IMG/VR virus record: IMGVR_UViG_3300044611_002466
Coordinates: 62,001-126,000 of that record
Length of the DNA stretch: 64,000 nt
Source: a virus
Reading direction: 5' to 3' (one strand)
Both the position numbers and the translations under genes were made by a program. The notes beneath the pieces were generated by a model. The model was not told where the DNA came from. It saw only the letters and a list, made by a program, of their open reading frames with translations, and searched no databases. Positions 23,357 through 63,312 of this stretch are shown in pieces; positions within the stretch are counted from its first letter, which is position 1; every line of letters begins with the position of its first letter.

Positions 23357-23582
23357 GAGTTCACCTCTGGCACTGGGTTGTGAGGACTGCACTGCCGTAC
23401 TTATGCCGTATTCAGGAAGCATCATGCGTTCAGAGCTTCATCATGAAGCCACCTCTTGCATAGTGCGTGCGGCCCTGGGGCGGTACTGAGCCGTTCTCGC
23501 GGCTAAGAGCCAGCGCGCACTTGGAGCCAAAACACGGCGCGAGCCCCAGCAGGATTTCCCCTCCCGTGGTATGCTGGTGCCC
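23357..23582. other. Divergent non-coding spacer
   Basis: 226 bases between divergently transcribed genes. On the minus strand it contains CATAAG (23405-23400), a GCTCTTAGCC string near 23500 and a very short ORF after a GAGGTGG site (about 23430-23460). On the plus strand the TATGCT near 23570 precedes the plus-strand gene. A minus-strand frame 23430-23618 that overlaps the plus-strand start is judged spurious. Confidence 0.5.
23400..23405 (-). promoter_or_regulatory. CATAAG promoter element, candidate
   Basis: Minus-strand CATAAG after TACGG, 43 bases before GTG 23356. Same hexamer as at 14 other operon starts, but the leader is longer and no terminator precedes it, so this is a weaker example. 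Confidence 0.45.
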
Positions 23583-35620: not shown

Positions 35621-35626
35621 CTTATG
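35621..35626 (-). promoter_or_regulatory. CATAAG promoter element, candidate
   Basis: Minus-strand CATAAG in GGTGTCATAAGC, 34 bases before GTG 35586 and overlapping the end of the endolysin gene. Presumably drives 35586-33153 (including gyrB). No terminator sits directly upstream, unlike most copies. Confidence 0.5.
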
Positions 35627-37042: not shown

Positions 37043-37048
37043 CTTATG
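37043..37048 (-). promoter_or_regulatory. CATAAG promoter element
   Basis: Minus-strand CATAAG in CTGGTCATAAGTAAG, 24 bases upstream of ATG 37018. The divergent plus-strand promoter starts 16 bases away, so this is a back-to-back promoter pair. Confidence 0.6.
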
Positions 37049-45177: not shown

Positions 45178-45202
45178 GGGCGTTGCCGTGGTTGCAACGC
45201 CC
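45178..45202 (-). promoter_or_regulatory. Leader hairpin of the 45162 transcript
   Basis: Nine-base arms GGGCGTTGC / GCAACGCCC around a 7-base loop, directly after CATAAG on the minus strand and before the ribosome binding site region. The mRNA would begin in or just before this stem, so it could protect the 5' end or regulate translation. Confidence 0.55.
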
Positions 45203-45207
45203 TTATG
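45202..45207 (-). promoter_or_regulatory. CATAAG promoter element
   Basis: TGTCATAAGG on the minus strand, 39 bases before ATG 45162. TTTAGC lies only three bases upstream and the terminator hairpin directly before that: the most compact terminator/promoter junction seen. Confidence 0.65.
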
Positions 45208-47325: not shown

Positions 47326-47344
47326 GATTCTTCACCTCTATCCC

Positions 47345-47350
47345 CTTATG
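47345..47350 (-). promoter_or_regulatory. CATAAG promoter element
   Basis: CTCTTTTGGGCATAAGGGG on the minus strand, 19 bases before ATG 47325. It is preceded by the terminator at 47374-47391 and TATTTAGC tail. Confidence 0.7.
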
Positions 47351-47373
47351 CCCAAAAGAGGGGCTAAATAGGT

Positions 47374-47391: not shown

Positions 47392-47414
47392 TACCGCGCC
47401 ACGCGTGCGGCGTC

Positions 47415-47915: not shown

Positions 47916-47923
47916 GATGCCTC

Positions 47924-48283
47924 CTACCTGCCGCCCTCGCGGCTGACGATGTTGTCGTAGTCGATCCCGGCCGCTACCGTTTCAGCGCTCGTTGGCCTCT
48001 TCGACGTCACATCCGTGAACCGAGCCCACACCCAGTAGTTCCGAGTGTGAGCTCGTCTCCATGGGTTCGAGAAGCCGCTGATCTCGTGCCCCCTCGAGCG
48101 CTTCCACTCGGCGCACAGAAGGTCCCAGGCGGTGCCCTTGTTCGGCACCACAGCCATGCCGACCTTGATCATGTGCGTCTTGGCGAAGCACTGCACCTCG
48201 AGACAGGGTCGCTCTGGGTCTTCCCCGCGCTGCAGAGGCTCTCGTACCTCCTCCGGAAGATCGGCCCAGTTCACCTTACTCAC
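47924..48283 (-). CDS. Unknown 119-residue protein
   Basis: GTG at 48283 with GAGGTGCC upstream. Begins MSKVNWADLPEEVREPLQRG; contains a Cys-rich CLEVQCFAKTHMIK and a WRRAHTRNYWVWARF near the C-terminus. No family recognised. Confidence 0.6.
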   Translation of the reverse strand: MSKVNWADLPEEVREPLQRGEDPERPCLEVQCFAKTHMIKVGMAVVPNKGTAWDLLCAEWKRSRGHEISGFSNPWRRAHTRNYWVWARFTDVTSKRPTSAETVAAGIDYDNIVSREGGR

Positions 48284-48716
48284 TTGGCACCTCAGTGGGT
48301 TCCTTCCAGCACCCCACCACGTAGAGCGCATCGCCTTGAAGGTCCGGGAACTTGGCGTCGAGTCGGCGCGAGATCAGACGCACTTTCACCGCCTTTTCCT
48401 CATTCAGCCGTCGTTCCTGCAGTACGACCGCTCTTCTCGCTTTGTCGAGTTCGACCCGCCGGTCGTTCTGCGCCTGTTGCAGCTCCAGGAGCTCCTTTCT
48501 CGCCAAGATGAAGTCGTCCTGGAACAGCCGATCCTTCTCGTTATATTCAACGCCGAGGACCTTGAGCTGGGCGTCGAGCTGCGGAATGCCCTCTTCCTCA
48601 TACAGCTGTCGTTCGCATTCCACTCTTTCGATATGTCTCGTCTCCCAGCGCTTCTTCTTCGCCGATTTGGCGGCTTTGTTGTGCGCTTTCTCCTCTTCCG
48701 TCTGCTTCTTGACCAT
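48276..48716 (-). CDS. Coiled-coil 146-residue protein
   Basis: ATG at 48716 with GAGAGGT upstream. Begins MVKKQTEEEKAHNKAAK; highly charged helices throughout (YEEEGIPQLDAQLKVL, VLQERRLNEEKAVKVRL). Its codons are less GC-rich than those of neighbours, suggesting a later acquisition or lower constraint. No family recognised. Confidence 0.6.
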   Translation of the reverse strand: MVKKQTEEEKAHNKAAKSAKKKRWETRHIERVECERQLYEEEGIPQLDAQLKVLGVEYNEKDRLFQDDFILARKELLELQQAQNDRRVELDKARRAVVLQERRLNEEKAVKVRLISRRLDAKFPDLQGDALYVVGCWKEPTEVPSE

Positions 48717-48772
48717 GTGGTACCTCTCAGTGTCGCCGCCCAACGATGACGGTCCTCGCGTTCGGAGCCAGT

Positions 48773-49387
48773 CTACTGCGGGAACGAGAACGGCTCCGAG
48801 ATGGCAGGCGGGATGGGGATGTGCTGACGGATGATGTTTGCAATCTCGTCGAGGTCTATGTGCTTCTCCTGGCGCATGTACATGCGGTCAGAGTACCCCG
48901 CATTGTGGACGAGATCGGAGAGGCGCGTCTGTTGGTTGCCGTCGAGCGGTCTCGGAGTCTGATAGTACCGCTTATCGACGAGCAGTATCCCATACTGGAT
49001 CCACCGCGGATACATCCGCCATTTACCCGTGCCGCCGGTGAATCCAAACTCGATCCAAAGCTCAGAGCGTGCACTGTCGTTGGAGAAGTGCGGGTCGATA
49101 GCGGCCCAGCGCTCCAGGAACCTCGCCACCTTTTCCTCCTCGACGTCATTCCTGATGTTGAGCAGGCGGATGATGTCCGATGCGATTCGCACGAGGGGGA
49201 TGAGGTCCATCGGCTTGCAGAGCCACGCGATTGCCCATGCCATCCAGTCGCCGCGCGAACAGGCATCCCACGCCTCTACGAGAGTGTCGTACTCGTTGCT
49301 CTTCACCCACTCGAAGGCCTCGTCGCACGCTCCTGCACGCCGAATAGATTCCAGAAGATTGGCATGTTCAGGGATTGTTGCACTCAT
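48773..49387 (-). CDS. Unknown 204-residue protein
   Basis: ATG at 49387, overlapping the upstream stop. Begins MSATIPEHANLLESIRRAGA and continues WVKSNEYDTLVEAWDACSRG then AWAIAWLCKPMD, like phage proteins of the 'cysteine-tryptophan helical repeat' kind that count Trp/Asp repeats (W-x-x-C). C-terminal 60 residues are charged helices. No family recognised. Confidence 0.6.
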   Translation of the reverse strand: MSATIPEHANLLESIRRAGACDEAFEWVKSNEYDTLVEAWDACSRGDWMAWAIAWLCKPMDLIPLVRIASDIIRLLNIRNDVEEEKVARFLERWAAIDPHFSNDSARSELWIEFGFTGGTGKWRMYPRWIQYGILLVDKRYYQTPRPLDGNQQTRLSDLVHNAGYSDRMYMRQEKHIDLDEIANIIRQHIPIPPAISEPFSFPQ

Positions 49388-49698
49388 ACGTTGCTCCTGG
49401 CCTTCCAGCGCTTCCAGCTCTCGCAGAGCGCCGGGATGTAACAGTGGTACATGGACTGCCTGGGGCCGTTGATGGCCGCCAAGCTCTCATCCCAGCAGCG
49501 GTCGGACAGCGTCATGGACGCGTAGTCCGGTCCGTTGTTGCCGAAGCGTGCGATGCAACAGGTGTGCGGCCCCTCGTCGGTGACGAGGCTATCCGCACAC
49601 CTGTAGTGGTCGAGAATCCGCCCATCGCTCTCCGACTGGCCGAGGTACACGCAGGCCTCGCAGTCGTGGGTGTAGGCGGGAAGCTGTTCTACCGCCAT
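49384..49698 (-). CDS. Unknown cysteine-rich 104-residue protein
   Basis: ATG at 49698. Begins MAVEQLPAYTHDCEACVYLG, with CEAC and several further Cys (GPHTCCIARFG, YHCYIPALC), so it may bind zinc or an Fe-S cluster. No family recognised. Overlaps the bL12-like gene by 10 bases. Confidence 0.6.
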   Translation of the reverse strand: MAVEQLPAYTHDCEACVYLGQSESDGRILDHYRCADSLVTDEGPHTCCIARFGNNGPDYASMTLSDRCWDESLAAINGPRQSMYHCYIPALCESWKRWKARSNV

Positions 49699-50039
49699 TC
49701 GATGTGCGCTCCCGCAGCCATCAGCCGCTGCACGACCAAGTTGGTCAGGTGGTACTTCCCGAGGCAGAAGGGCAGGGGGTTGTCCTCCACCATGGCCTTG
49801 ATTTGCGTCAGTCCTTCCTCAGGGCGGAGCTCTCGGAGCAGAGCGATGGCCTCCACTTTGCCGACCATGTAGCGGCGAGAGTTCGGCAGGGGCAGGCGGT
49901 GGTGCACGTTGGGGGGCAGCGCCAGAAGCCACAGCTCCATCCGAGGGTCCGTCTCGTTCAGTAGGGAGAGCACTTCGGTCCGCAGGTTGTTCAGTCCCGC
50001 CAAGAGCTCCTGGAGCTTCTTCTTCTGCTCATCGGTCAT
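49689..50039 (-). CDS. Ribosomal protein bL12 C-terminal domain-like protein
   Basis: 116 residues from ATG 50039 (GGAGG upstream). Residues about 57-116 (YMVGKVEAIALLRELRPEEG, LTQIKAMVEDNPLPF and MAAGAHIEW) align with the bL12 C-terminal domain pattern KVxVIKxVR...GLKEAKxxVExxP...AGAxVE. In ribosomes this domain recruits translation factors. The N-terminal 55 residues are a different helical region, not a bL12 dimerisation domain by eye. It may attach to host ribosomes or factors. It begins a transcript with CATAAG. Confidence 0.8.
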   Translation of the reverse strand: MTDEQKKKLQELLAGLNNLRTEVLSLLNETDPRMELWLLALPPNVHHRLPLPNSRRYMVGKVEAIALLRELRPEEGLTQIKAMVEDNPLPFCLGKYHLTNLVVQRLMAAGAHIEWR

Positions 50040-50061
50040 GATGTCATTTACCTCCGCACTT

Positions 50062-50067
50062 CTTATG
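50062..50067 (-). promoter_or_regulatory. CATAAG promoter element
   Basis: GTTTTGGACATAAGAAG on the minus strand, 22 bases before ATG 50039. TTTCTTTAGCTC and a hairpin lie upstream. Confidence 0.7.
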
Positions 50068-50093
50068 TCCAAAACGACGCAGAGCTAAAGAAA

Positions 50094-50112
50094 CAGGGCC
50101 CGAAGTGCCCTG
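50094..50112 (-). terminator. Terminator at operon junction
   Basis: Arms CAGGGC / GCCCTG with 7-base loop; minus strand continues TTTCTTTAGC. It follows the stop of the 50140-50826 gene by 28 bases. Confidence 0.75.
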
Positions 50113-50139
50113 CCTCCCCGAAGACCAGCGGCGGGTCCT

Positions 50140-50826
50140 CTACTCCTTGGGAGGGTGCTTGATGAAGCGCGCCTCGAGCACATGGGCGGTGCGGAACTCT
50201 CCCTCCGTGCGTGGGAGCAGGAAGCGCGGGGTGCCGCCCTCGGTCTCTTCGTCGAGGAGCCGCAGGATGGTCTCCAGGTCCCGACCCTGGATGACCTGAG
50301 CGGGGTCGACCCCTGCCCATAGGGGAACTCCGTTGGCGCCACCCATGTCGAACATGCCCACTCGAGGGGCACTGGACTCCACTCCCACTGCGAACACGTA
50401 GCGCCGCCCTCGCCAGTTCGGGTCTCCTCCGCTGAAGAGCACCTCCATGATCGCGTCCTTGCGGGTGACCATGAGGCTGTCCGGGCCCCTCGAGTGGTGA
50501 GTCCGCCAGCGTCCCTTCACCATCTCGCGCCAGCCGTCGCCGGGCATGATGAATCCGCAGCCCCCCTTATTCGTGCGACCCCGGGTGTTCACGCGTACGG
50601 CCACCCCCTTGGTCTGTGGTTTGCTCAGAGAGAAGGCGTCGATGTGCATGTACGCCTCTCCCTCGTCAACGAGCTCCCCCAGGAGCCCTCCTGCGGAGTA
50701 GTTGCAGATCCGAATCTCGGTACCACCAGCCGTTCCCGCGTCGCCGAATGTCGACGTGCGCTGAACGAGGTCATCCACCGGGACGCCCGTGGTGATGCCG
50801 TACGGCTCAGCCGTGTAGAAGTGCAT
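50140..50826 (-). CDS. Unknown 228-residue protein
   Basis: ATG at 50826. Begins MHFYTAEPYGITTGVPVDDL; beta-rich, no Cys clusters, ending with FRTAHVLEARFIKHPP. No family recognised. Confidence 0.6.
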   Translation of the reverse strand: MHFYTAEPYGITTGVPVDDLVQRTSTFGDAGTAGGTEIRICNYSAGGLLGELVDEGEAYMHIDAFSLSKPQTKGVAVRVNTRGRTNKGGCGFIMPGDGWREMVKGRWRTHHSRGPDSLMVTRKDAIMEVLFSGGDPNWRGRRYVFAVGVESSAPRVGMFDMGGANGVPLWAGVDPAQVIQGRDLETILRLLDEETEGGTPRFLLPRTEGEFRTAHVLEARFIKHPPKE

Positions 50827-50869
50827 TTCGCCTCCAGATAGTGGAAGGCCTCGCTGACACGCAGAGCCC

Positions 50870-51184
50870 CTATGGCCTGCGCTCCGCGGCGACCTTGTCG
50901 TAGTACCGTTCCTTGCAGCGCAGGGCCTTCTGCGCCCGCCCCAGCAGCGCCTCGAGCCCGGCCTCGTCGAGTTCAGGGGGACAGCTCGAGGAGCGGTGGA
51001 CGATGCCCCTCCAGATACCCCAGTGGGGCGGCCTGGTGACTTCACCTGCCCGCGCCTTCCACTGCCCCGTCGCGTTGACTGTGAAGGCGACCAGCCCGTG
51101 GTCGAAGGCGATCACCTCGAACCCACCCTCCCGATACGTGGGCCGCTTGGTGCCCTCGATGATAGCGCCCGTTGGAGTCGTCAT
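50870..51184 (-). CDS. Unknown 104-residue protein
   Basis: ATG at 51184, overlapping the previous stop. Begins MTTPTGAIIEGTKRPTYREG; beta-rich then a helix (LEALLGRAQKALRCKERYYD). No family recognised. Confidence 0.6.
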   Translation of the reverse strand: MTTPTGAIIEGTKRPTYREGGFEVIAFDHGLVAFTVNATGQWKARAGEVTRPPHWGIWRGIVHRSSSCPPELDEAGLEALLGRAQKALRCKERYYDKVAAERRP

Positions 51185-51507
51185 ACCGGGTCTCGTCCCC
51201 AGGCCTCGAGCTCGACATGAAGCGAGAGCACCTGCGAGTCGGGCCGTCGGATCCATCCGCGCTTGCTCACCTCGAACCAAGGGACCTGCTCAACTACCCG
51301 CAGATGCTGGGCGCTGACCGCGTGCTGTATGCAGACCAACCCGAGCAAGTCGGGCGTCATGAACATGTCCCCCACCATGGGCACCGTGTCGAAGTCCACC
51401 TGAGTCACGGCGGTGCGCACGTGCCCGAAGTTCTCGAGCTCGCGGGGCCACCTGCGCACCAAGTCCTTTCGTACGTGCATGCTCAACCAGATACTGTTCT
51501 TCAGCAT
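51181..51507 (-). CDS. Unknown 108-residue protein
   Basis: ATG at 51507. Begins MLKNSIWLSMHVRKDLVRRW, mixed; a VDFDTVPMVGDMFMTPDLL middle. No family recognised. Overlaps neighbours. Confidence 0.6.
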   Translation of the reverse strand: MLKNSIWLSMHVRKDLVRRWPRELENFGHVRTAVTQVDFDTVPMVGDMFMTPDLLGLVCIQHAVSAQHLRVVEQVPWFEVSKRGWIRRPDSQVLSLHVELEAWGRDPV

Positions 51508-51986
51508 GTCTCTTCTTCCTCCTCCTCTTCCCCCTCTTCATCCCCGTAAGGGGCGGGCGGCGGCTGCCACGTCGCTTCGAGGAGCTCCCGGAGCTTGATC
51601 ATCTCCTTCAGGGCCTTCTCGGTCTGCGCGATGATCTCGTCACTGGCGCGGCCGCAGTCGTAGGGGTCGTTGTTCCGCCCAGTGAAGATTCGCGCATTCT
51701 CTCCCCAGATCTGTCCGACGAGCTTCTTCGCTCCCGCCCGCCTCTTGCGGTCCTCGTCGACTTCACCGATACGGAGGTCGAGGAGACCGTCCGGTGCCGG
51801 CACCCACTCTGGGGACGGCCGGATCGTCCAGACACGTCGGCCGTCTTCTGCAAACAGGCCCCCGCCAACTCGGTAGACAGGAAGACCCTCGAACAGCCGC
51901 CCCTTTCTGGCGAGCTTCGCCACGTCGAAGGTCACGACGTCCCTCACACTTTCCACCTGATATTCTTTTCCTTCTTGGATCTTCAC
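51501..51986 (-). CDS. Unknown 161-residue protein with acidic tail
   Basis: GTG at 51986 with GAGAGGTGAA upstream (GTG 51992 possible). Begins MKIQEGKEYQVESVRDVV; beta-rich start, then a helix, ending with the acidic tail DEEGEEEEEEETC. No family recognised. Confidence 0.6.
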   Translation of the reverse strand: MKIQEGKEYQVESVRDVVTFDVAKLARKGRLFEGLPVYRVGGGLFAEDGRRVWTIRPSPEWVPAPDGLLDLRIGEVDEDRKRRAGAKKLVGQIWGENARIFTGRNNDPYDCGRASDEIIAQTEKALKEMIKLRELLEATWQPPPAPYGDEEGEEEEEEETC

Positions 51987-52003
51987 GTTCACCTCTCGAG
52001 GTT

Positions 52004-52009
52004 CTTATG
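52004..52009 (-). promoter_or_regulatory. CATAAG promoter element
   Basis: GGGGCATAAGAACC on the minus strand, 17 bases before GTG 51986. TCTCTTAGCC follows the terminator upstream. Confidence 0.65.
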
Positions 52010-52041
52010 CCCCATTCCATCGCATTTCACGGGGCTAAGAG

Positions 52042-52069
52042 ACAGAGCCCGTCTTGACGACGAGCCCTG
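52042..52069 (-). terminator. Terminator at operon junction
   Basis: Arms ACAGAGCCCGTC / GACGAGCCCTGT (12 bases, with two G-U type pairs), 5-base loop; minus strand continues CTCTTAGCC. Located 8 bases after the stop of the 52077-52634 gene. Confidence 0.8.
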
Positions 52070-52076
52070 TCAGTAC

Positions 52077-52634
52077 TCACCCCCCGCGAGGAACGGCGTC
52101 GAACTGCACCAGCCTGTGTACGCTGAAGCATCGACCTTCGTGGCCGGGCTCGAGATTGCAGGCCAGGGCGCGCTCGTCATCGACCCCGCAGCAGTACACC
52201 CGCACACGCAGTCCTACCTCGGCGCGTATCGAGACCCGTGCTCCCTCGGGAGTGTTCGCGCGCAGCCACTCACGGAAGGACGCCTCCAGCGCGGCCTCCA
52301 TGTCTTTCGCAGGGACGTCCGCCGCGACCGCAGGACGGCTGTTGAGTTGCCCTTGAAGTCGCTCGACCTCCTCCACCAGAGCCTGCACGTCGTGCGGAGC
52401 GGTGTGAACGTAGCTCGACCACGCCCTGGCCCTGCTGAGCCGAGCCGCCTCTGCGGGGCAGTCCTTCTGGTGCCACCAGGGGTGGCCATAGCGGCAGCCA
52501 CAGGCCACGCAGACGCCTTCCCCCTTGGGCCGCCCAGGCAGCACCCTGAGCTTGGGCTGGCCTTCGTCGAGGTACTCGGAGGGCCCGATGGAGGCCAGCC
52601 GCGCCTTAATCTCGTCGAGGTTGAAGTCAGCCAT
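52077..52634 (-). CDS. Unknown 185-residue protein
   Basis: ATG at 52634 in a TGATG overlap. Begins MADFNLDEIKARLASIGPSE; contains CVACGCRYGHPWWHQKDC, a zinc-ribbon-like cluster, an acidic/helical central part (VQALVEEVERLQGQL) and a second Cys pair (VYCCG...AC). No family recognised. Confidence 0.6.
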   Translation of the reverse strand: MADFNLDEIKARLASIGPSEYLDEGQPKLRVLPGRPKGEGVCVACGCRYGHPWWHQKDCPAEAARLSRARAWSSYVHTAPHDVQALVEEVERLQGQLNSRPAVAADVPAKDMEAALEASFREWLRANTPEGARVSIRAEVGLRVRVYCCGVDDERALACNLEPGHEGRCFSVHRLVQFDAVPRGG

Positions 52635-53077
52635 CAGCTGATTTCGTCGACGAAGAGAGCGACGTCGAGCGCCCCCGGCACGAGCTCCACGCGGGACGTG
52701 CCCTCGGTGATCTCGATGATGTCGACGTACACCACCCCGATCCGCGGGCTCACCGTCCGGACGAAGAGCATGCCGTCGATCTCCTGCGCCCAGAGCGGCA
52801 TGTTCAGTTTGTTCCACATGGGGGCGTCCCCTCCCGCCCAGATCCGGATAGGGAGCTTGCTCGAGCTCTTCGACTCGCCCGGCACCCTGGCGCACATGTT
52901 GAAGCCCCTCGGCATCCCCAGCGCGAGGGTGTGGCGGAAGTCCATCGTCGTCCCGCACACGTGACTGTCGCAGCTGAGGCCATATGCCGTGCTCGGCTTG
53001 TACTCCCCGCAGTCCGTATTGCTGCCGCACACGCAGCCGGGACACACGTACTTCTCAAGAATCGACTTCGCGTCCAT
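52634..53077 (-). CDS. Unknown cysteine-rich 147-residue protein
   Basis: ATG at 53077. Begins MDAKSILEKYVCPGCVCGSN, with CPGCVC, C (DC), C (SC) and C, likely zinc-binding, and a beta-rich C-terminal half (GVVYVDIIEITEGTSRVEL). No family recognised. Confidence 0.6.
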   Translation of the reverse strand: MDAKSILEKYVCPGCVCGSNTDCGEYKPSTAYGLSCDSHVCGTTMDFRHTLALGMPRGFNMCARVPGESKSSSKLPIRIWAGGDAPMWNKLNMPLWAQEIDGMLFVRTVSPRIGVVYVDIIEITEGTSRVELVPGALDVALFVDEIS

Positions 53078-53562
53078 CAGGTCTTCTCCTTGGGTGGCGC
53101 ACTCTGCGCCTGTTGTTGTATTCGGGCTTGCTCGCGGAACTCCTCTGTGGTGAAGAGGTAGTACCCGTTGTGGACCAGCACGTTCGGGGTCGACCCCCAG
53201 GTGGCTGGGATCCAGTCTTCGCGCGGGTCGAGGCGACCGGCGTCAAACTCGCGGTCTTGGTAAGAGGCGCACGACTCGCCCACTTCACGCACCACAAGCT
53301 CGCCAAGGACGTTGACGATCTCGTAGATCATGCCCGCCTTCAGCAGGCCCTGGACGTTCTTGCCCAGGATGAGCTGACCGTCCGAGCGCACGGCCAGGCG
53401 CGCGACCGCAGCCTCTTGGCCCTTGGCCGGGGCGCGCTGACTCCCTCCACACGCCGGGCAGGTCTCCCAGCCGCGGCCCCAGCCGATGAACACCATGCCG
53501 GCTGGATGGTTGACCTCACCCGCCCTCGGTGCACAGCTCTGACACTGCCCTTTGTCCTTCAT
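53077..53562 (-). CDS. Unknown 161-residue zinc-ribbon-like protein
   Basis: ATG at 53562. Begins MKDKGQCQSCAPRAGEVNHP then CPACGG about residue 40; the middle (LILGKNVQGLLKAGMIYEIV) is beta-rich and the C-terminus is a long helix. No family recognised. Confidence 0.6.
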   Translation of the reverse strand: MKDKGQCQSCAPRAGEVNHPAGMVFIGWGRGWETCPACGGSQRAPAKGQEAAVARLAVRSDGQLILGKNVQGLLKAGMIYEIVNVLGELVVREVGESCASYQDREFDAGRLDPREDWIPATWGSTPNVLVHNGYYLFTTEEFREQARIQQQAQSAPPKEKT

Positions 53563-53572
53563 AGTGACCCCC

Positions 53573-53929
53573 TCAATACATGATCTGGCGCCAAGCGCGC
53601 TCGGCCGTGAGACGGGAGAGCGCGTCCTTCTGGTGTTCATGGTGCAGCGCCTTCACCGCATTGGCCCGCGCCACCTCCCAGGTCTGGCTGAACAGCTCCT
53701 TGCCGTGCATCCTGAGCAGGGCACGGCTGTTCTCGGGCGTGGCGATCTCGGGAGGCAGCTCCGCCTTCGCGAGCAGCTGCATGACGGCCTCTCGAGCCGA
53801 ACTCGGGTCTACGACCTCTCCGTGGTTCTCGTAGTGTGCGGCGATCAGACGAATCACTGCCCACCCCGCCATCACGCCCACGAACCGCTCGAAGGTCTTG
53901 ACATCCCGCAGGATCTCTTCGTTCATCAT
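53573..53929 (-). CDS. Unknown 118-residue helical protein
   Basis: ATG at 53929, overlapping the upstream TGA. Begins MMNEEILRDVKTFERFVGVM; a helical protein with a hydrophobic AGWAVIRLIAAHYE segment. No family recognised. Confidence 0.6.
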   Translation of the reverse strand: MMNEEILRDVKTFERFVGVMAGWAVIRLIAAHYENHGEVVDPSSAREAVMQLLAKAELPPEIATPENSRALLRMHGKELFSQTWEVARANAVKALHHEHQKDALSRLTAERAWRQIMY

Positions 53930-54189
53930 CGTACCGCCTCGAACGTGCCTTTCACTCGGTGGACCTGTATGGTACGCGACAGCAGATGCACCTTGCCGTT
54001 GTCGATACTGACGACGAGCCGCAGCTCCTTGGTGATGATGTCGTTGAGGCCCTTCACGCTCTCCGGGTTCAACGGCATGTAGATCCGGTTTGCTTCCTCG
54101 CGTACATTCACATGCTGCAGCCTAAACGTGTCTCCATCGTCAAGATCGCTGAGCAGGAGTCCGGGGTTTGTCTTGAAGGTGACGTCCAT
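53926..54189 (-). CDS. Unknown 87-residue protein
   Basis: ATG at 54189. Begins MDVTFKTNPGLLLSDLDDGD; beta-rich with a helical middle. No family recognised. Confidence 0.6.
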   Translation of the reverse strand: MDVTFKTNPGLLLSDLDDGDTFRLQHVNVREEANRIYMPLNPESVKGLNDIITKELRLVVSIDNGKVHLLSRTIQVHRVKGTFEAVR

Positions 54190-54431
54190 TAGTCCTTCCT
54201 CTTGGTGGTCTTCTCTTCGGTCTCGGCCCACAGCTCCTCGAGCTTGTGGCGCAGGGGGATGTCACAGCCCTTGTTCATGGGCTCGATCTTCATGATGAGG
54301 CCATCGCCTCGGGAGGGGACGAGCACACCTCTGGCGATGAAGCCGTAGTTCTCTTCCTTCAGGTACTTGCGGAGGTTCGAGTCCTCGATGATCAAGTACT
54401 TCGGCCCCTCTTCTCCGCTTTCGTCCGTCAT
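54189..54431 (-). CDS. Unknown 80-residue protein
   Basis: ATG at 54431. Begins MTDESGEEGPKYLIIEDSNL; acidic, then basic C-terminus (WAETEEKTTKRKD). No family recognised. Overlaps its neighbours. Confidence 0.6.
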   Translation of the reverse strand: MTDESGEEGPKYLIIEDSNLRKYLKEENYGFIARGVLVPSRGDGLIMKIEPMNKGCDIPLRHKLEELWAETEEKTTKRKD

Positions 54432-54730
54432 GACGACACCCCCGCAGCTTCGCACAGAGCGTCCCAGCTGGCGTCGAACATGTGACTCGCGTCCAGGCGG
54501 CGGTACGCCTGGCGCATCTTGCTCTCGTTGGGAGCGTACATCTTGCGCGCCTGCTCGTCTGTGGCGAGCACGAACTGTGCGCAGGAACAGCTGGCGTTCA
54601 GGCACTGTCGCTCAGTCTGCGGACTCGGCATGTTCTTGATGTGATCGACGTACGCGTGCCCGCAGGCACACATCGACACGCCCATAGGAGCGCCGTTGTC
54701 CGCGATGGGGTTCCTCTTCAGCTTCGGCAT
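54428..54730 (-). CDS. Unknown cysteine-rich 100-residue protein
   Basis: ATG at 54730 with GGAGGTGAAG upstream; GTG 54733 overlaps. Begins MPKLKRNPIADNGAPMGV; a metal-binding set CACGHAYVDHIKNMP, CLNASCSCAQF. First gene of a transcript. No family recognised. Confidence 0.6.
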   Translation of the reverse strand: MPKLKRNPIADNGAPMGVSMCACGHAYVDHIKNMPSPQTERQCLNASCSCAQFVLATDEQARKMYAPNESKMRQAYRRLDASHMFDASWDALCEAAGVSS

Positions 54731-54748
54731 CACTTCACCTCCGTGATG

Positions 54749-54754
54749 CTTATG
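54749..54754 (-). promoter_or_regulatory. CATAAG promoter element
   Basis: CACGGTCATAAGCATCACGG on the minus strand, 18 bases before ATG 54730. Preceded by CATTAACCC instead of TTTAGC. Confidence 0.7.
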
Positions 54755-54778
54755 ACCGTGAGTTTCACAGGGTTAATG

Positions 54779-54803
54779 AACAGAGCCCGCCACGGGTTGT
54801 TCA
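54779..54803 (-). terminator. Weak terminator candidate
   Basis: Imperfect hairpin AACAGAGCCCG / CGGGTTGTT around a 3-base loop, 6 bases after the stop of the 54809-55339 gene. No good T-tract; weakest junction of the set. Confidence 0.4.
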
Positions 54804-54808
54804 AGCAC

Positions 54809-55339
54809 TCAGCCCTTCTTCGCCGTCCGCGCGTGGTTCTCCACGTGCGCGTGGAAGCAGCGGGCGTGCTCTTCTTGCATGAACAGGGCCCAGGAGACCT
54901 TCATCCCGCGGTCGTCCGTTCCTCCTCTGCTCTGCTTCGAGTAGGCCCACCATCCGTCGGTGGGCCGTGGCCGCATGTCATCCCCCGCGCCCAGCCGCTG
55001 CCGAAGGTAGAGGGGCTCGCAGAAGCGGTAGAGCGGGTGCTCCTTCAGCTGGTCCTCGATGAGGTCCTCGGCCTCCCGCCGCTGGTCGGGCATCCCCACG
55101 TACCAGAGCTCCTGGACGATCTTGCTCTCCGCCGGCAGAGAGATCTTGTCCACGATCAGGTTCTCGAGCTCCCGGGCAAGCGCGTCCATCTGAGCGCCGA
55201 CCGTGCCGAACTCGAACTCCGCAGCACCCATCCACTCGATCTCGAAGTTCTGCCCGAGTCGGCCCTTGTAGCGGTTGTCCGGCTCCTCGCGCCACGTCAG
55301 GCGCTGTACCAAGTAGGGCCGTGCAGTCGTTGTCGTCAT
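54809..55339 (-). CDS. Unknown 176-residue protein
   Basis: ATG at 55339 with GGGAGCTGCG upstream. Begins MTTTTARPYLVQRLTWREEP; long helix with WMGAAEFEFGTVGAQMDALA (a phrase recalling phage proteins that start with a GAAEFE core), no Cys clusters. No family recognised. Confidence 0.6.
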   Translation of the reverse strand: MTTTTARPYLVQRLTWREEPDNRYKGRLGQNFEIEWMGAAEFEFGTVGAQMDALARELENLIVDKISLPAESKIVQELWYVGMPDQRREAEDLIEDQLKEHPLYRFCEPLYLRQRLGAGDDMRPRPTDGWWAYSKQSRGGTDDRGMKVSWALFMQEEHARCFHAHVENHARTAKKG

Positions 55340-55360
55340 CGCAGCTCCCATGCTCATGAA

Positions 55361-55377
55361 GAGGCCACTATGGCCTC
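55361..55377 (-). terminator. Short hairpin before the 55339 gene
   Basis: Seven-base arms GAGGCCA / TGGCCTC with a 3-base loop, followed on the minus strand by TTCATGAG. Follows the 55397-55723 gene by 20 bases. Confidence 0.5.
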
Positions 55378-55396
55378 GTTGTTGAAGTCGAAGGCG

Positions 55397-55723
55397 TTAC
55401 TGCTCTTCAAGGACGATGCCGAGGTCTTCTCCGCACAGCGCGGCTACCTCAGCAACCGCGGCCCACCAGCACGCACGATCTTCGTCGTCTTGCTCAGTCG
55501 GTTTGAGCCAATACCGCGCCCAGTCCGGCATGGCCTTTTCGTGCGGAGTGGGCATCCGTATGCGCCCGTAACCATCGGCATCTTCTCGCCGACCACACTC
55601 CTTGCACTTCGCGTAGAACTCGATGTTGTAGCCGAACGTGGCGTGGTCGTCGGCATACTGCTCACTGCCCTGCTCCCACACACCGCTGCACTCCACAGTG
55701 CGAAACCCGACGTGCCTGGTCAT
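55397..55723 (-). CDS. Unknown 108-residue protein
   Basis: ATG at 55723. Begins MTRHVGFRTVECSGVWEQGS, then a CKECGRREDADGYG zinc pair, helical C-terminus. No family recognised. Confidence 0.6.
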   Translation of the reverse strand: MTRHVGFRTVECSGVWEQGSEQYADDHATFGYNIEFYAKCKECGRREDADGYGRIRMPTPHEKAMPDWARYWLKPTEQDDEDRACWWAAVAEVAALCGEDLGIVLEEQ

Positions 55724-55729
55724 CTCGCC

Positions 55730-56041
55730 CTACCAGACGTGCACGTGGTACCAGCGCTCCTCGCGCTTACCGTTGGCGAAGGTGATGTGACAGCGCTGCA
55801 CCACCTTCGGCTTCCACAACCGTCCTTCCTGGGTCAAACGACGAAGAAGCTCGAGCATGTGCATGCCGCGCGTCTCGCTAAGACGAGGCTCATCGTGCTT
55901 CCCGAACTGCGCGCGCTCCTCCTCTGACAGCAGATGCAGAACGTCGCCGCCCGACATGCCTCCATCAGAGTGCTTGCGCTCGCCGTGTTGAACGAGGAAC
56001 AAGACACGCTCTTCCATGCCACTCTCGATACCACCCATCAT
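55730..56041 (-). CDS. Unknown 103-residue protein
   Basis: ATG at 56041 (or 56038) with GAGGTGA upstream. Begins MMGGIESGMEERVLFLVQHG; helical middle, aromatic C-terminus ending HVHVW. No family recognised. Confidence 0.55.
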   Translation of the reverse strand: MMGGIESGMEERVLFLVQHGERKHSDGGMSGGDVLHLLSEEERAQFGKHDEPRLSETRGMHMLELLRRLTQEGRLWKPKVVQRCHITFANGKREERWYHVHVW

Positions 56042-56063
56042 TCACCTCGGTTGTTGGGGACGA

Positions 56064-56270
56064 TCATGCCTGTCGGCTGAGATTCTCCACTCGTATCCGA
56101 AACGCGCAGTGCTCACAGGGCTCCACGTCTGGATGGCCCAGCAGCTTTGCGCAGTACCACTCTGGCGTGGGTCGGATGTCTGCCGCAGAAGAGCTGCAGT
56201 TCCCAGGTGGCGGAAGATGCACCCGGATGTGCATGTCGATGGAGCGAGAACCGCGCCGGTCAACGCCCAT
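56064..56270 (-). CDS. Unknown 68-residue protein, start uncertain
   Basis: ATG at 56270 lies inside the end of the sigma-like gene; a second ATG at 56234 is an alternative. Reads MGVDRRGSRSIDMHIRVHLP, with a Cys pair CEHCAF near the C-terminus. Called because of its position between two genes and good coding character of the C-terminal half. No family recognised. Confidence 0.45.
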   Translation of the reverse strand: MGVDRRGSRSIDMHIRVHLPPPGNCSSSAADIRPTPEWYCAKLLGHPDVEPCEHCAFRIRVENLSRQA

Positions 56271-57321
56271 CGGGCTTTCGCGGCAGCACGAAGCCACGGT
56301 TGCCGAGTCCCTCCCAGCCCATGGGAACGCCATTGGCGTCGAACCACGTCCTCGTCTCATGCGGGAAGAGTCCGTTGTTGTACTCGTGGGTTCCTTCCGG
56401 CCACGTCTGCCGGCACACATGCGCGAGCATGCCGAAGGGATGGGCGTCGGTGATCAGGACACGCTCCCGACCACTCTCGTTCACCCGCTTGTTGTAGATG
56501 TCCACGACCTCGTTTCTGAGGAACAGCTCGAACGTGAGGGCTCGTGCCGCAACGCGTCTGAGCCACTCGATCGTTTGCGGTCCCTGCACCCGCGGCCACT
56601 TGGTCTTCGCGGAGTCTCCCTCCCCACGCACCCACTGCGTCCAGTACTCGACCATCGCATCCACCGCATCCTTGCGCGTCCACACGTCGGTGGACATGAC
56701 GTTGAACACAGCGGCGACTTCACCACGTGGCACACGCGTGGGCGGGTCCAGCTCCTCGGCGGCTCGCAGCTTGTGCCGAATATCCATCTTGCAGCGCGAC
56801 ACGGTCGACGCTTGGATCTTCAGCAGCTCGGCGAGTCGCTGCGTGCACCCGCGCCCTGACAGGACCTCGTTGACGATGGTGCGCTCGACTTCGTCCAACT
56901 CGGGGAGGATTCGAGCCAGCCGCATCCCGATGTTCGTGTAGCCGCCTGAGCGCAGCGCCTCGTGCTCCCACAAGAGCGCCGTATCCGGAGCGTTCTTGAT
57001 GACGAAGCGGCGCAGCCCCCGCAGCTGCATGTGGATGTGCGTCCACAGCGTGCTGCGCCCAGGCACCCACGTCTCACACGCCACGTGAACCAGCTGCCAC
57101 GCGTACATGTTCAGACTGCTCTCTTCCACCCTGCTCGCCTTGTACTTTTCGATCTCCGCACCAACTCGCGCGGAGAAGTGCTCGACCAGCGCATCGGACA
57201 GCCCATCCTTCGTCACACTCCACACCCCCCAGACCGCAGCGTCATGCACATGCGCCAGAACGCGCGCCTTCTCTTCTTCCACTTCCATCTCTTCCACGAC
57301 CTGCTCTGACGACTGATACAT
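56260..57321 (-). CDS. Possible phage sigma-factor-like protein
   Basis: 353 residues from ATG 57321 (GGAGGTGAAG upstream). Residues about 138-187 (ILPELDEVERTIVNEVLSGR, CTQRLAELLKIQASTVSRC, then MDIRHKL) look like sigma70 region 4, with the helix-turn-helix that meets the -35 or activators. A preceding Trp/aromatic segment (about 72-112) could be region 2-like. The C-terminal 160 residues are unknown. It opens a transcript with CATAAG and is the best candidate to read that element. I could not verify region 2 by eye; a non-sigma HTH regulator is the alternative. Confidence 0.45.
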   Translation of the reverse strand: MYQSSEQVVEEMEVEEEKARVLAHVHDAAVWGVWSVTKDGLSDALVEHFSARVGAEIEKYKASRVEESSLNMYAWQLVHVACETWVPGRSTLWTHIHMQLRGLRRFVIKNAPDTALLWEHEALRSGGYTNIGMRLARILPELDEVERTIVNEVLSGRGCTQRLAELLKIQASTVSRCKMDIRHKLRAAEELDPPTRVPRGEVAAVFNVMSTDVWTRKDAVDAMVEYWTQWVRGEGDSAKTKWPRVQGPQTIEWLRRVAARALTFELFLRNEVVDIYNKRVNESGRERVLITDAHPFGMLAHVCRQTWPEGTHEYNNGLFPHETRTWFDANGVPMGWEGLGNRGFVLPRKPDGR

Positions 57322-57337
57322 CTTCACCTCCGTCACC

Positions 57338-57343
57338 CTTATG
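57338..57343 (-). promoter_or_regulatory. CATAAG promoter element
   Basis: TGCACGTCATAAGGGTGACG on the minus strand, 16 bases before ATG 57321. Preceded by TTCTTAGCTC and the hairpin at 57373-57387. Confidence 0.7.
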
Positions 57344-57372
57344 ACGTGCATTCCTTGGAGCTAAGAACAGGG

Positions 57373-57387
57373 CCCCCTGTGAGGGGG
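57373..57387 (-). terminator. Terminator at operon junction
   Basis: Arms CCCCC / GGGGG around TGTGA; minus strand continues CCCTGTTCTTAGC. Located 22 bases after the stop of the 57410-57712 gene. Confidence 0.75.
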
Positions 57388-57409
57388 ATGTTCTTGCGTC
57401 ACGTAGGTC

Positions 57410-57712
57410 TCATTCTGCGTACAGCGAAAACACCCAGAGTCCGCCTTCATCGTCTTCGTGATACCGCCACTCCACGATGTCACAGCGCAGCACCAGAGTG
57501 CATTTCTGCGCAAACAGCTCGACCAACTCGTCGGTGGTCCAGTCCCCGCGCTCTCCATCCACGGTCCAATACGCGGCGTCGAGCTCTCCCTCTTCATCGT
57601 AGGTGGTGAAGTTGGAGAACTTTCCCATGTTCAGACGTTTGTTGACCAACGGGTACAGGTCGTTATCGTTGGAGAGCTTGGCCTTGCTGTCATCCGAAAA
57701 TACAACCAACAT
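57410..57712 (-). CDS. Unknown 100-residue protein
   Basis: ATG at 57712 with GAGGTGAAC upstream. Begins MLVVFSDDSKAKLSNDNDLY; beta-rich with an acidic C-terminal half (YHEDDEGGLWVFSLYAE). The first gene downstream of the long non-coding region. No family recognised. Confidence 0.6.
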   Translation of the reverse strand: MLVVFSDDSKAKLSNDNDLYPLVNKRLNMGKFSNFTTYDEEGELDAAYWTVDGERGDWTTDELVELFAQKCTLVLRCDIVEWRYHEDDEGGLWVFSLYAE

Positions 57713-57730
57713 GATGTTCACCTCAATCTC

Positions 57731-57736
57731 CTTATG
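57731..57736 (-). promoter_or_regulatory. CATAAG promoter element
   Basis: GTTGGTCATAAGGAG on the minus strand, 18 bases before ATG 57712. No terminator hairpin directly upstream; the non-coding region lies there instead. Confidence 0.65.
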
Positions 57737-58216
57737 ACCAACTACATCGACAAGTTCCGCAACAGCCGTAGTAGCAACGAATCGCCCAAGTCCTCGAAGC
57801 ACATGTACCCCCAGAGGGAGCAACCCATACCTGTGCAGGGAGTGTGCTGAGGGAGAGTGTGTAGATGGGAGGTGTGCGTGGTGTGAATGGTGGAAGGTGT
57901 ACATGTGCGACTGGTGGGTAGAATAGGGTAAACTACGTGTTGATGAGAAACGTAGATGGCCTCTTCTATGTGCGTTTACGCAAGAATAGCATGTATATAG
58001 CACTTCTTGTGTGTAAGAGTGGCATGTATGTGGCACTTCTTGCATATACGTGATGTCCTAAAAGTGCCTTTATTCTCACGAATACGCGCAATATAGTGTG
58101 TGGTAGACTTCGCGCGGTACCGATTTAGGGTCTTTTAAGACATGCGCTATTACGAGGACTCTTGTACATAGCCAATATGGCACTTCTTGCGCACAACACC
58201 GCTACGGGTTAATACG

Positions 58217-58291
58217 ACGACGCCACCACGGGACGCCACCCCCTTGCGAGGGCTGCGTGGTGGGAGTTGGACCCACAGTTCGCCGTTAGCT
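58217..58291 (-). ncRNA. Structured RNA candidate
   Basis: On the minus strand just after CATAAG (58297-58292): GTGGG/CCCAC stem with a 7-base loop, then CCACCACG/CGTGGTGG (58223-58230 with 58256-58263) enclosing a second hairpin with CCCTCGCAAGGGG. About 75 nt of dense structure with no ORF. A tRNA reading was rejected. Could be an sRNA, or a complex terminator. Confidence 0.4.
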
Positions 58292-58297
58292 CTTATG
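58292..58297 (-). promoter_or_regulatory. CATAAG promoter element, no gene directly downstream
   Basis: CGCGCATAAGAGC on the minus strand. No start codon with ribosome binding site follows within 100 bases; the structured RNA candidate does. Confidence 0.5.
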
Positions 58298-58429
58298 CGC
58301 GTAAATCATGGTGTTTTGCATGAATGCTGAAATGAGCGCAGATAACCCTAAAAGTGCACTAATCCTCGAAGTAGCGTGTAGGTCCTTAGGGCCAGAGGAA
58401 AGACATCTGGGTGGAAAAGGGGGCCACAG

Positions 58430-58594
58430 AGGTATCCAAGACCCCGGCACCATTTTGGTATCTCTTAAAACCGACACTTTCACAGGTATCCAAAACTCCA
58501 CCCATATTTTAGTCGTTCTTAAATGGCCCCTCCAGCTATCAATCTACGCACTCAGATATCCAAACCCTGGCATCATTTTGGTCGTTCTTAAAAC
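58430..58594. repeat. Three direct repeats of about 40 bases
   Basis: Copies at 58430-58470, 58484-58523 and 58554-58594 share AGRTATCCAA, then a C-rich segment, CATTTTGGTCG (or close) and TTCTTAAA. Unit spacing is 54 and 70 bases. A fourth partial copy (CAGGTCGTTTTAAG) is near 58631-58644. Each unit ends in an A/T-rich imperfect palindrome. Confidence 0.65.
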
Positions 58595-58662
58595 AGCGTT
58601 AAGGACGCCCCCATTAGTTCCATCCCTAAAACAGGTCGTTTTAAGATGCGGGCTAAAAGGAC

Positions 58663-58680
58663 GTGCCCCCTGCGGAGCAC
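58663..58680 (-). terminator. Terminator after the 58692 gene
   Basis: Arms GTGC / GCAC with CCCC/GGGG-type inner pairing (GTGCTCCGCAGGGGGCAC); minus strand then reads GTCCTTTTAGCCC. 12 bases after the stop at 58692. Confidence 0.75.
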
Positions 58681-58691
58681 ACCCCGGATCC

Positions 58692-58937
58692 TCAGATCCA
58701 CTTGAGCCGTTCCGCGAGCCGCAGCCCGCAGAAGGTCAAGACCCCCCAGACCGCGAAGATGCCGGAAGCCTTCAAGCTGGCCACCACCGACTGCCACGCG
58801 GTCTGGTTCCAGACGTACTCGAAGGCGTCTGGGACCAGGAACCAGGCGACAACTGAGGGTGGTATGCACCAGAGCGTCCACCAAAGGTAGACCGGCGACA
58901 GGAGGGACGACACGGGAAGACATTGGTTCTTGGACAT
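58692..58937 (-). CDS. Two-helix membrane protein
   Basis: 81 residues from ATG 58937 with GAGGTGAACC upstream. Hydrophobic helices at about 15-36 (PVYLWWTLWCIPPSVVAWFL) and 55-73 (KASGIFAVWGVLTFCGL), short basic end. Small membrane protein of unknown role; size would suit a holin, but no lysis neighbour is present. Confidence 0.65.
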   Translation of the reverse strand: MSKNQCLPVSSLLSPVYLWWTLWCIPPSVVAWFLVPDAFEYVWNQTAWQSVVASLKASGIFAVWGVLTFCGLRLAERLKWI

Positions 58938-58954
58938 TGGTTCACCTCAACGTC

Positions 58955-58960
58955 CTTATG
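58955..58960 (-). promoter_or_regulatory. CATAAG promoter element
   Basis: CAAAAGGGTCATAAGGAC on the minus strand, 17 bases before ATG 58937. No terminator directly upstream; the previous gene's stop is at 58973, 13 bases away. Confidence 0.7.
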
Positions 58961-58972
58961 ACCCTTTTGGCC

Positions 58973-59332
58973 CTACTCTTGCACCTGTACCTGGATCTTG
59001 AGGAAGTCCTTCGCGGGCATGACCCGCGAGAAGTGCTTGATGTTGGCGGCCCTGTTCGCCTCGTAGGTGCCAGTATCGGCCACCGAGCCGATACTCCACA
59101 TGCCCCGCCGGCGGTACGCATCGACCGCTTCCCGATCTCCGGTCCTGGGCGTGATTGGGAACACCTGCAGGACCTCGCGGCCGTACTTGCCAAAGACCAC
59201 GATACACCACTCATTGAGCGGCACGGAACCGCCATCCTCCTTGTCGCCGAGGGAACACAGGATGCCTCCCTCGTCGAACTTGTCCTCACCCGCTTCTTCG
59301 GCACCATCATCACTCTCGTTCAAGAACGGCAT
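58973..59332 (-). CDS. Unknown 119-residue protein
   Basis: ATG at 59332 with GGAGGTGAAG upstream. Begins MPFLNESDDGAEEAGEDKFD; acidic start, then beta-rich WCIVVFGKYGREVLQVFP and a helical end. Frame 58942-59313 on the same strand is a shadow of it. No family recognised. Confidence 0.6.
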   Translation of the reverse strand: MPFLNESDDGAEEAGEDKFDEGGILCSLGDKEDGGSVPLNEWCIVVFGKYGREVLQVFPITPRTGDREAVDAYRRRGMWSIGSVADTGTYEANRAANIKHFSRVMPAKDFLKIQVQVQE

Positions 59333-59348
59333 CTTCACCTCCGCTCTT

Positions 59349-59354
59349 CTTATG
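59349..59354 (-). promoter_or_regulatory. CATAAG promoter element
   Basis: AAATCGACATAAGAAG on the minus strand, 16 bases before ATG 59332 and overlapping the end of the 59350 gene by a few bases. Confidence 0.7.
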
Positions 59355-59835
59355 TCGATTTGACTACCACTCTTGCGGCCTCACCAGGTCGTAGTGCGTA
59401 CCCGCCATCGCGGAGCTCGGGCCACAGGTACGGAAGGTCGTTTGGGACGTCGGACCAGAACACGCCATAATGCCCCTGATCTTTGCGCAGCAGGTTTGAG
59501 CGGTGTGCGCGATGGAACCGCGCGTCCCCGAGCCACGGAGGTGCCGCCGACTCCACTTCAGGGAGGAGCTCGAGCCGTTGTCGGATCTTCTCCGCACAGG
59601 TGTCAGCGTACCCGCGCGCACTCCAGACCTCGCACACGACGAGCCCGTAGAAGCAGAGCGCGCGACGATGCCCGGACCACATGCGCGCCGCAGGATGATT
59701 GCGCCACCCGGCACCAGCGAAGCCGCCGAGTGCGTTGAGCAGCTGGAGGACTTCCACACGCTGCTTGCCCAAGCGCTGCCGGTCCAGGACAGCAGCAGAC
59801 TCGTCGAACGAGGGGTACGGAAGGAAGGTTTGCAT
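59350..59835 (-). CDS. Pyrimidine-dimer glycosylase-like protein (Pyr_excise family)
   Basis: 161 residues. MQTFLPYPSFDESAAVLDRQ, RLGKQRVEVLQLLNAL and AGWRNHPAARMWSGH are the signature of the MSMEG_6728-like Pyr_excise family, related to T4 endonuclease V (DenV). The T4 enzyme removes UV-induced pyrimidine dimers; family members may act as glycosylases or have another role. It has CATAAG upstream (59856) and a terminator. Confidence 0.85.
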   Translation of the reverse strand: MQTFLPYPSFDESAAVLDRQRLGKQRVEVLQLLNALGGFAGAGWRNHPAARMWSGHRRALCFYGLVVCEVWSARGYADTCAEKIRQRLELLPEVESAAPPWLGDARFHRAHRSNLLRKDQGHYGVFWSDVPNDLPYLWPELRDGGYALRPGEAARVVVKST

Positions 59836-59855: not shown

Positions 59856-59861
59856 CTTATG
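59856..59861 (-). promoter_or_regulatory. CATAAG promoter element
   Basis: GATTTTGGCCATAAGTGG on the minus strand, 20 bases before ATG 59835. TTTTAGCCC and the hairpin at 59887-59920 lie upstream. Confidence 0.75.
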
Positions 59862-61538: not shown

Positions 61539-61544
61539 CTTATG
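61539..61544 (-). promoter_or_regulatory. CATAAG promoter element
   Basis: CACGTCATAAGTACAATG on the minus strand, 40 bases before ATG 61498; the extra leader holds a hairpin. The SLOG gene stop lies inside the element. Confidence 0.7.
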
Positions 61545-62732: not shown

Positions 62733-62738
62733 CTTATG
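62733..62738 (-). promoter_or_regulatory. CATAAG promoter element
   Basis: ATTCACGACATAAGCGCC on the minus strand, 38 bases before ATG 62694. A small leader hairpin GTAG/CTAC (62711-62724) lies between. TTTTAGCC and the terminator at 62773-62799 are upstream. Confidence 0.7.
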
Positions 62739-63306: not shown

Positions 63307-63312
63307 CTTATG
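63307..63312 (-). promoter_or_regulatory. CATAAG promoter element
   Basis: ACGCCGTCATAAGAGGAC on the minus strand, 19 bases before ATG 63287. TTTTAGCCC and a hairpin lie upstream. Confidence 0.75.

What the first reader, a model, noticed from the sequence alone, without database searches (positions are those of the whole stretch)
56260..57321. Sigma-factor-like gene that could read the CATAAG promoters
The protein has a region 4-like helix-turn-helix between about residues 138 and 187 and an aromatic segment before it, and carries its own CATAAG promoter. A phage-encoded sigma would explain why the promoter class has no host-type -35 element and is confined to the minus-strand operons.
Basis: inference. 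Interest (0 to 1): 0.72.

Follow-up and report, generated by a model that had tools for sequence, protein, structure and literature searches.

The report
Accessory phage sigma paralogue, not CATAAG reader
The gene is a real but divergent member of a phage sigma-factor family, yet the CATAAG promoters are also used by related phages that lack it, so they are most likely read by the phage's own RNA polymerase with a different, conserved sigma factor that lies outside the window.

Summary
The window lies in a 188-kb phage. The ORF is real (353 aa, ATG at 57321, its own CATAAG 22 nt upstream). It is a sigma relative: residues about 27-136 match a phage sigma family by profile (E 2.4e-6; 22.1 bits against at most 3.6 in 2000 shuffles), a model resembles sigma domain 2, and residues 138-187 give a sub-threshold Sigma70_r4 match. 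It lacks most of region 3 and has an unassigned 165-residue tail.

A collinear relative (G001) has 37 CATAAG sites, all minus-strand, and no homologue. Both phages share a fused beta-beta' RNA polymerase (gene 17) and a conserved sigma (gene 212, 78% identical), both outside the window. Salmonella phage Arash, whose virions contain the homologous polymerase and sigma by published mass spectrometry, has the same promoter class with T at -12 and lacks the gene.

The promoter is more than CATAAG: A-32/A-31, G-14, CATAAG at -12 to -7, T-1/G+1, at fixed spacing. G at -7 is nearly invariant, unlike host sigma70 promoters.

Best model: the phage polymerase with sigma gene 212 reads CATAAG at early minus-strand genes; the finding's gene is one of its targets and an accessory second sigma with unknown targets.

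The parts
56260..57321 (-). gene 160: accessory sigma-like protein, 353 aa, ATG start at 57321
   Evidence: ORF and Shine-Dalgarno; matched by the gene-212 sigma-family HMM, E 2.4e-6 among the proteins of three phages
56992..57243 (-). sigma region 2 (2.1-2.4), residues about 27-110
   Evidence: BLASTP 15/43 identity to gene 212, E 3e-5 for a single comparison; HMM; AF2 pLDDT about 66-87 with Foldseek hits to sigma domain 2, 8b3z TMt 0.72, rmsd 2.0 over 67 columns
56914..56991 (-). start of sigma region 3 (3.0-like), residues about 111-136; the rest of region 3 is missing
   Evidence: HMM alignment runs through residue 136
56761..56910 (-). sigma region 4-like helix-turn-helix, residues 138-187
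   Evidence: Pfam Sigma70_r4 E 0.021, 2-50/50, below the curated cut-off; helices 130-141, 144-155, 161-191 predicted at low confidence
56263..56754 (-). C-terminal extension, residues about 190-353, no recognisable domain
   Evidence: no Pfam match; apparent internal repeat not significant, 47 of 500 shuffles
57331..57363 (-). promoter of gene 160: A at 57362 (-31), G at 57345 (-14), CATAAG 57343-57338, predicted start G57331, 10-nt leader
   Evidence: position profile of 70 sites; sequence
57731..57736 (-). CATAAG promoter of the gene at 57410-57721
54749..54754 (-). CATAAG promoter
52004..52009 (-). CATAAG promoter (lacks the -31 A)
50062..50067 (-). CATAAG promoter
47345..47350 (-). CATAAG promoter
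45202..45207 (-). CATAAG promoter (lacks the -31 A)
37043..37048 (-). CATAAG promoter
35621..35626 (-). CATAAG promoter
23400..23405 (-). CATAAG promoter (lacks the -31 A)
58292..58297 (-). CATAAG site; no close downstream start called, promoter profile incomplete
58955..58960 (-). CATAAG promoter
59349..59354 (-). CATAAG promoter
59856..59861 (-). CATAAG upstream of the ORF at 59350-59835; promoter profile incomplete
61539..61544 (-). CATAAG promoter
62733..62738 (-). CATAAG promoter
63307..63312 (-). CATAAG promoter

Best explanation
The phage encodes its own sigma-dependent transcription machine: a fused beta-beta' RNA polymerase (gene 17, contig 14161-23067 +) and a sigma factor (gene 212, contig 152493-153368 +, inside the virion-structure operon). 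By analogy with phage Arash both are probably packaged and injected. This holoenzyme reads the bipartite promoter A-32 A-31 ... G-14 n C-12 A T A A G-7 ... T-1 G+1 in front of early minus-strand genes. The gene of the finding (gene 160) is one of those targets. It is a divergent relative of the packaged sigma (region 2, start of region 3, region 4-like HTH, own C-terminal tail), most likely an accessory sigma that binds the same polymerase (or the host's) after infection has begun. Shown here: the promoter grammar, its conservation without gene 160, the presence of the polymerase and sigma genes, the sigma relation of gene 160. Inferred: packaging in this phage, that gene 212 contacts CATAAG, early timing, and the role of gene 160.
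For: CATAAG 29 minus/1 plus in G000, 37/0 in G001. Gene 160 has no homologue in G001, G004, G005, Arash or Vibrio phage D69; its one hit, in G003, is that contig's own sigma gene. Gene 212 is 78% and 70% conserved in G001 and G002, matches Sigma70_r3 E 2.7e-6 at its cut-off and the PHROG sigma factor family E 4.4e-6. Gene 17: PF00562 E 5e-68 and PF00623 E 4e-18 in one frame with NADFDGD; it also has a stretch LPVLPPsvRR..LDG...RNPLY...N.ILK that resembles, from my own knowledge, the sigma-binding clamp-helix region of cellular beta'. Arash virions contain RNAP beta, beta' and sigma Gp10 (467 spectra, 100% coverage) (PMC10585845). Arash early regions give TGGTATAAG by unbiased motif search. GNYATAAGNA is strand-biased: G000 0/16, G001 0/18, Arash 1/27, G004 2/28, G005 24/3 in a record of opposite orientation, controls far weaker. 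Fixed spacing of A-31, G-14 and T-1/G+1. Gene 160 homology to the family and sigma-2 fold.
Against: No experiment links gene 212 to CATAAG; the host is unknown; packaging is taken from a distant relative (about 28% identity in sigma), and the Arash authors note that abundance in the cell could also explain the virion signal. Gene 160 shares with gene 212 the R/K-G residues at the positions that meet -12 in sigma70, so it could read the same promoters. Vibrio phage D69 shows the motif bias more weakly. The AF2 model of gene 160 used gene 212 rows in its alignment; the single-sequence model was uninformative (pLDDT 37).
Confidence: 0.6

Rival explanations
1. One reading: gene 160 is the sigma factor that reads the CATAAG promoters.
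For: It is a sigma relative, is expressed from a CATAAG promoter, and keeps region 2.4-like residues similar to gene 212.
Against: 37 CATAAG in G001 without the gene; the same promoter class in Arash, G004 and G005 without it; its expression would depend on itself; it lacks most of region 3.
Confidence: 0.1
2. The host's own sigma70 (or another host sigma) reads CATAAG as an extended -10 promoter; the phage polymerase and sigma serve other genes.
For: G-14 and, in Arash, TGnTATAA resemble the extended -10 element; host RNA polymerase commonly transcribes phage early genes.
Against: G at -7 is nearly invariant (28 of 28 in G000, 34 of 35 in G001, 22 of 28 in Arash, where GGTATAAT occurs once) although T-7 is a hallmark of sigma70 promoters; the grammar is shared by phages of different G+C (52-67%) that share the polymerase and sigma.
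Confidence: 0.22
3. Gene 160 is not an activator but a decoy or anti-sigma: a truncated sigma that occupies the polymerase and shuts the CATAAG class down.
For: Missing most of region 3 and having an extra C-terminal tail; no second promoter class was found that it could serve.
Against: Keeps both DNA-binding parts; no direct evidence.
Confidence: 0.15
4. Gene 160 is an unrelated HTH protein and the sigma likeness is chance.
For: No curated family passes its cut-off; Phage_CII scores as well as Sigma70_r4 on the HTH; hhalign of the single sequence gives only 13% probability.
Against: Real score 22.1 bits against a maximum of 3.6 in 2000 shuffles; next protein E 0.18; hit to the G003 sigma, E 5.7e-5; sigma folds dominate the fold search.
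Confidence: 0.07

Closest known systems
Salmonella phage Arash virion RNA polymerase and sigma Gp10 (PMC10585845)
   Same: Homologous polymerase (gp206) and sigma (about 28% identity to gene 212); structural genes on one strand, early-type genes on the other; same promoter class (GGTATAAG) found here
   Different: Arash splits the polymerase into gp206 and gp216, has T at -12, no clear AA at -32/-31 and no gene 160; the paper does not mention promoters
phiKZ/AR9-type multisubunit phage RNA polymerases
   Same: Phage-encoded multisubunit polymerase, with a packaged form for early genes
   Different: Those lack a sigma homologue by sequence (PMC7824862, PMC13282480); here a sigma-70 relative is encoded beside the polymerase
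Phage-encoded sigma factors that use host core (T4 gp55, SPO1 gp28 from own knowledge; group 2 jumbo phages, PMC7824862)
   Same: Sigma-70 relatives with phage-specific promoters
   Different: Those phages have no multisubunit polymerase of their own
ECF sigma factors
   Same: Gene 160 has region 2 and region 4 with little between; the best BFVD fold match is an RpoE homologue
   Different: Weak sequence similarity, a region 3.0-like remnant, a 165-residue C-terminal tail

Membership tests
sigma-70 superfamily (gene 160) | Region 2 (core binding, -10 recognition) | tested here: met
   Family HMM E 2.4e-6, shuffles at most 3.6 bits; fold search, with the caveat that gene 212 rows guided the model
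sigma-70 superfamily (gene 160) | Region 4 helix-turn-helix | tested here: inconclusive
   Sigma70_r4 E 0.021 over the full model, below cut-off; Phage_CII equal
sigma-70 superfamily (gene 160) | Binds RNA polymerase core and directs promoter-specific initiation | not testable with these tools
   needs in vitro transcription
reader of the CATAAG class (gene 160) | Present wherever the promoter class is present | tested here: not met
   absent from G001 with 37 sites, and from Arash, G004, G005
reader of the CATAAG class (gene 212) | Present wherever the promoter class is present | tested here: met
   G000, G001, G002, G004, G005, Arash and D69 all carry a homologue; not an independent test where the relatives were found through gene 212
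sigma-70 superfamily (gene 212) | Curated sigma domain at or over its cut-off | tested here: met
   Sigma70_r3 25.3 bits, cut-off 25.3; PHROG sigma factor family
virion-packaged phage RNA polymerase | beta and beta' catalytic domains with NADFDGD | tested here: met
virion-packaged phage RNA polymerase | Present in the virion | not testable with these tools
   shown by mass spectrometry only in Arash

The most novel reading that the evidence does not exclude
A lineage of 180-190 kb phages carries a complete, probably injected, sigma-dependent RNA polymerase with its own promoter (AA at -32/-31, G-14, YATAAG), and at least one member has added a second, early-made sigma relative that re-programmes that polymerase: a sigma-switching cascade run wholly by a viral enzyme.
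Probability: 0.3. Interest if true: 0.8.

Novelty: new variant of a known kind. Interest (0 to 1): 0.6.

Why it matters
The reviews read here say that the well-studied multisubunit phage polymerases lack a sigma homologue. Here a fused viral polymerase occurs with a true sigma relative, and a defined promoter grammar is conserved across phages of different base composition. That makes promoter recognition by a viral sigma holoenzyme directly testable, and the change between C-12 and T-12 among lineages offers a natural test of which region 2.4 residues set specificity.

Tried and rejected
Single-sequence AlphaFold of gene 160: pLDDT 37, not used. Relatives of gene 160 by back-translated peptides in viral contigs and by tblastn in 50,697 phage records: none. 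Internal duplication of gene 160: not significant. T7-like single-subunit polymerase: PF00940 gave no match, but its control did not ring either, so this is not proof of absence. A separate promoter motif for plus-strand genes or for genes without CATAAG: the plus-strand search returned only divergent CATAAG sites read backwards; after those were left out, the remaining signals were weak and look like coding periodicity. The first PDB search of the HTH fragment was in the wrong frame and was repeated: no sigma hit. Gene 124 as a further sigma: E 0.0012 with the three-sequence profile, gone with the eight-sequence profile.

Full report
What the feature is. The window is bases 62001-126000 of a 188,230-base phage contig. 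The ORF at 56260-57321 (-) is 353 codons, starts at ATG 57321 behind GGAGGTGAAG, and has CATAAG at 57343-57338. No Pfam family and no PHROG passes E 0.01 with the full protein, and no relative was found in 50,697 phage records or the viral contigs. I call it gene 160, from a simple gene caller run here.

Sigma identity. The same contig holds a second candidate, gene 212 (contig 152493-153368 +), with a Sigma70_r3 match and a match to the PHROG 'RNA polymerase sigma factor'. BLASTP finds gene 160 residues 65-107 ungapped on gene 212, 15/43 identities, E 3e-5 for this one comparison. A profile of the gene 212 family picks gene 160 out of the three phages' proteins at E 1.9e-5, 1.4e-4 without Arash and 2.4e-6 with eight members; 2000 shuffles reach at most 3.6 bits against 22.1. 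Gene 160 alone also finds the sigma gene of contig G003 at E 5.7e-5. The HTH fragment matches Sigma70_r4 over the whole model at E 0.021, below cut-off. A model of residues 1-192, built with three gene-212 region-2 rows, has pLDDT 64 overall and about 66-87 over region 2. Its PDB matches with good local superposition are mainly sigma domain 2, although no E-value is below 0.001, the two top rows superpose poorly and an unrelated scaffold protein is among the top five; the best viral match is an RpoE homologue, E 6e-3. So the protein is a divergent sigma relative with region 2, the start of region 3, probably region 4, and an unassigned tail.

Who reads CATAAG. CATAAG is 29:1 for the minus strand in this genome. 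The collinear relative G001 (182,777 bases) has 37:0 and shares most genes, including gene 212 at 78%, but has nothing like gene 160 by HMMER or BLAST other than its gene 212, and no counterpart at the syntenic place. The fragment G002 has 7:0, though some of its sites lie inside plus-strand genes. Gene 160 is therefore not needed for the promoter class, and being behind a CATAAG itself it cannot start the class unless it is packaged.

The polymerase. Gene 17 is a single frame holding beta and beta' domains, with NADFDGD. Salmonella phage Arash has the homologous polymerase, and its published virion proteome contains beta, beta' and sigma Gp10 (PMC10585845); the authors note that abundance in the cell could also explain this. 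Gp10 is the homologue of gene 212 and lies likewise among structural genes. Vibrio phages D69, D148 and D181 carry both genes too.

The promoter. Aligning 70 minus-strand sites from G000, G001 and G002 shows, at fixed spacing, A at 20 and 19 bases before the hexamer's first base (56% and 81%), G at 2 before it (87%), and T at 11 and G at 12 after it. With the hexamer at -12 to -7 these are -32/-31, the extended -10 position -14, and T-1/G+1. The signal is in G000 and G001 separately, and T-1/G+1 is kept where the start codon is far away (25 and 23 of 37 sites), so it is not just the Shine-Dalgarno. An unbiased search of Arash upstream regions returned TGGTATAAGTAA; 22 of 24 GGTATAAG in the 127 kb held are on the early strand, with the same T-1/G+1. 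The fixed pattern GNYATAAGNA then gave forward/reverse counts of 0/16, 0/18, 1/27, 2/28 and 24/3 in five genomes (none in the fragment G002), always more on the strand opposite to the sigma gene. D69 shows it more weakly. G at -7 is nearly invariant except in D69, which argues against host sigma70, whose consensus has T there (established knowledge).

Mechanism. The most economical reading is that polymerase gene 17 with sigma gene 212, probably injected, reads the minus-strand promoters, and gene 160 is one product of that wave. Its role is open: no further promoter motif was found for it, so accessory sigma with overlapping specificity, switch to unrecognised promoters, and decoy all remain possible. 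The residues at the positions that meet -12 in sigma70 read R-G in gene 160 and K-G in gene 212 by hand alignment, so overlap is not excluded.

Relation to known systems. Packaged multisubunit phage polymerases are known, but reviews state that phiKZ- and AR9-type enzymes lack sigma by sequence (PMC7824862, PMC13282480). Polymerase plus sigma in virions is reported for Arash. What appears new here is the promoter grammar, its conservation, and the accessory sigma relative. I found no description of the promoter in the papers held, which is not proof of novelty.

Noticed in passing
L042 (contig 14161-23067), residues about 1429-1920 and 2345-2709 of gene 17: Gene 17 carries two insertions absent from G001, one right after the catalytic NADFDGD and one before TFHTGGV; the first has Intein_splicing and LAGLIDADG matches, the second starts with C and ends HN before T: probably two inteins in the polymerase active centre.
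   Followed up: partly
CATAAG sites with leaders of 33 nt or more in G000 and G001: Several leaders form a short hairpin beginning near the predicted start, for example TGTGCACC...GGTGCACG; enrichment over shuffles is modest (mean z -1.36 at the best offset).
   Followed up: partly
upstream of many CATAAG sites, e.g. 50067, 52009, 57343: T-rich TTTAGCC or TTCTTAGC stretches after GC-rich inverted repeats, probably terminators of the preceding operon.
   Followed up: no
window 40052-59835, one ORF of the batch (probably 59350-59835): A pyrimidine-dimer DNA glycosylase match (E 1.4e-19) and an SSB match (E 1.7e-18) among the minus-strand genes; which ORF carries each was not checked.
   Followed up: no
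G000 and G001, plus strand: No promoter motif was found for the plus-strand (structural) genes, whose mode of transcription stays unexplained.
   Followed up: partly
sigma families of G000-G002 versus Arash, G004, G005, D69: C at -12 goes with G, and T at -12 with K or A, at the position equivalent to sigma70 Q437 by hand alignment: a possible specificity change.
   Followed up: no
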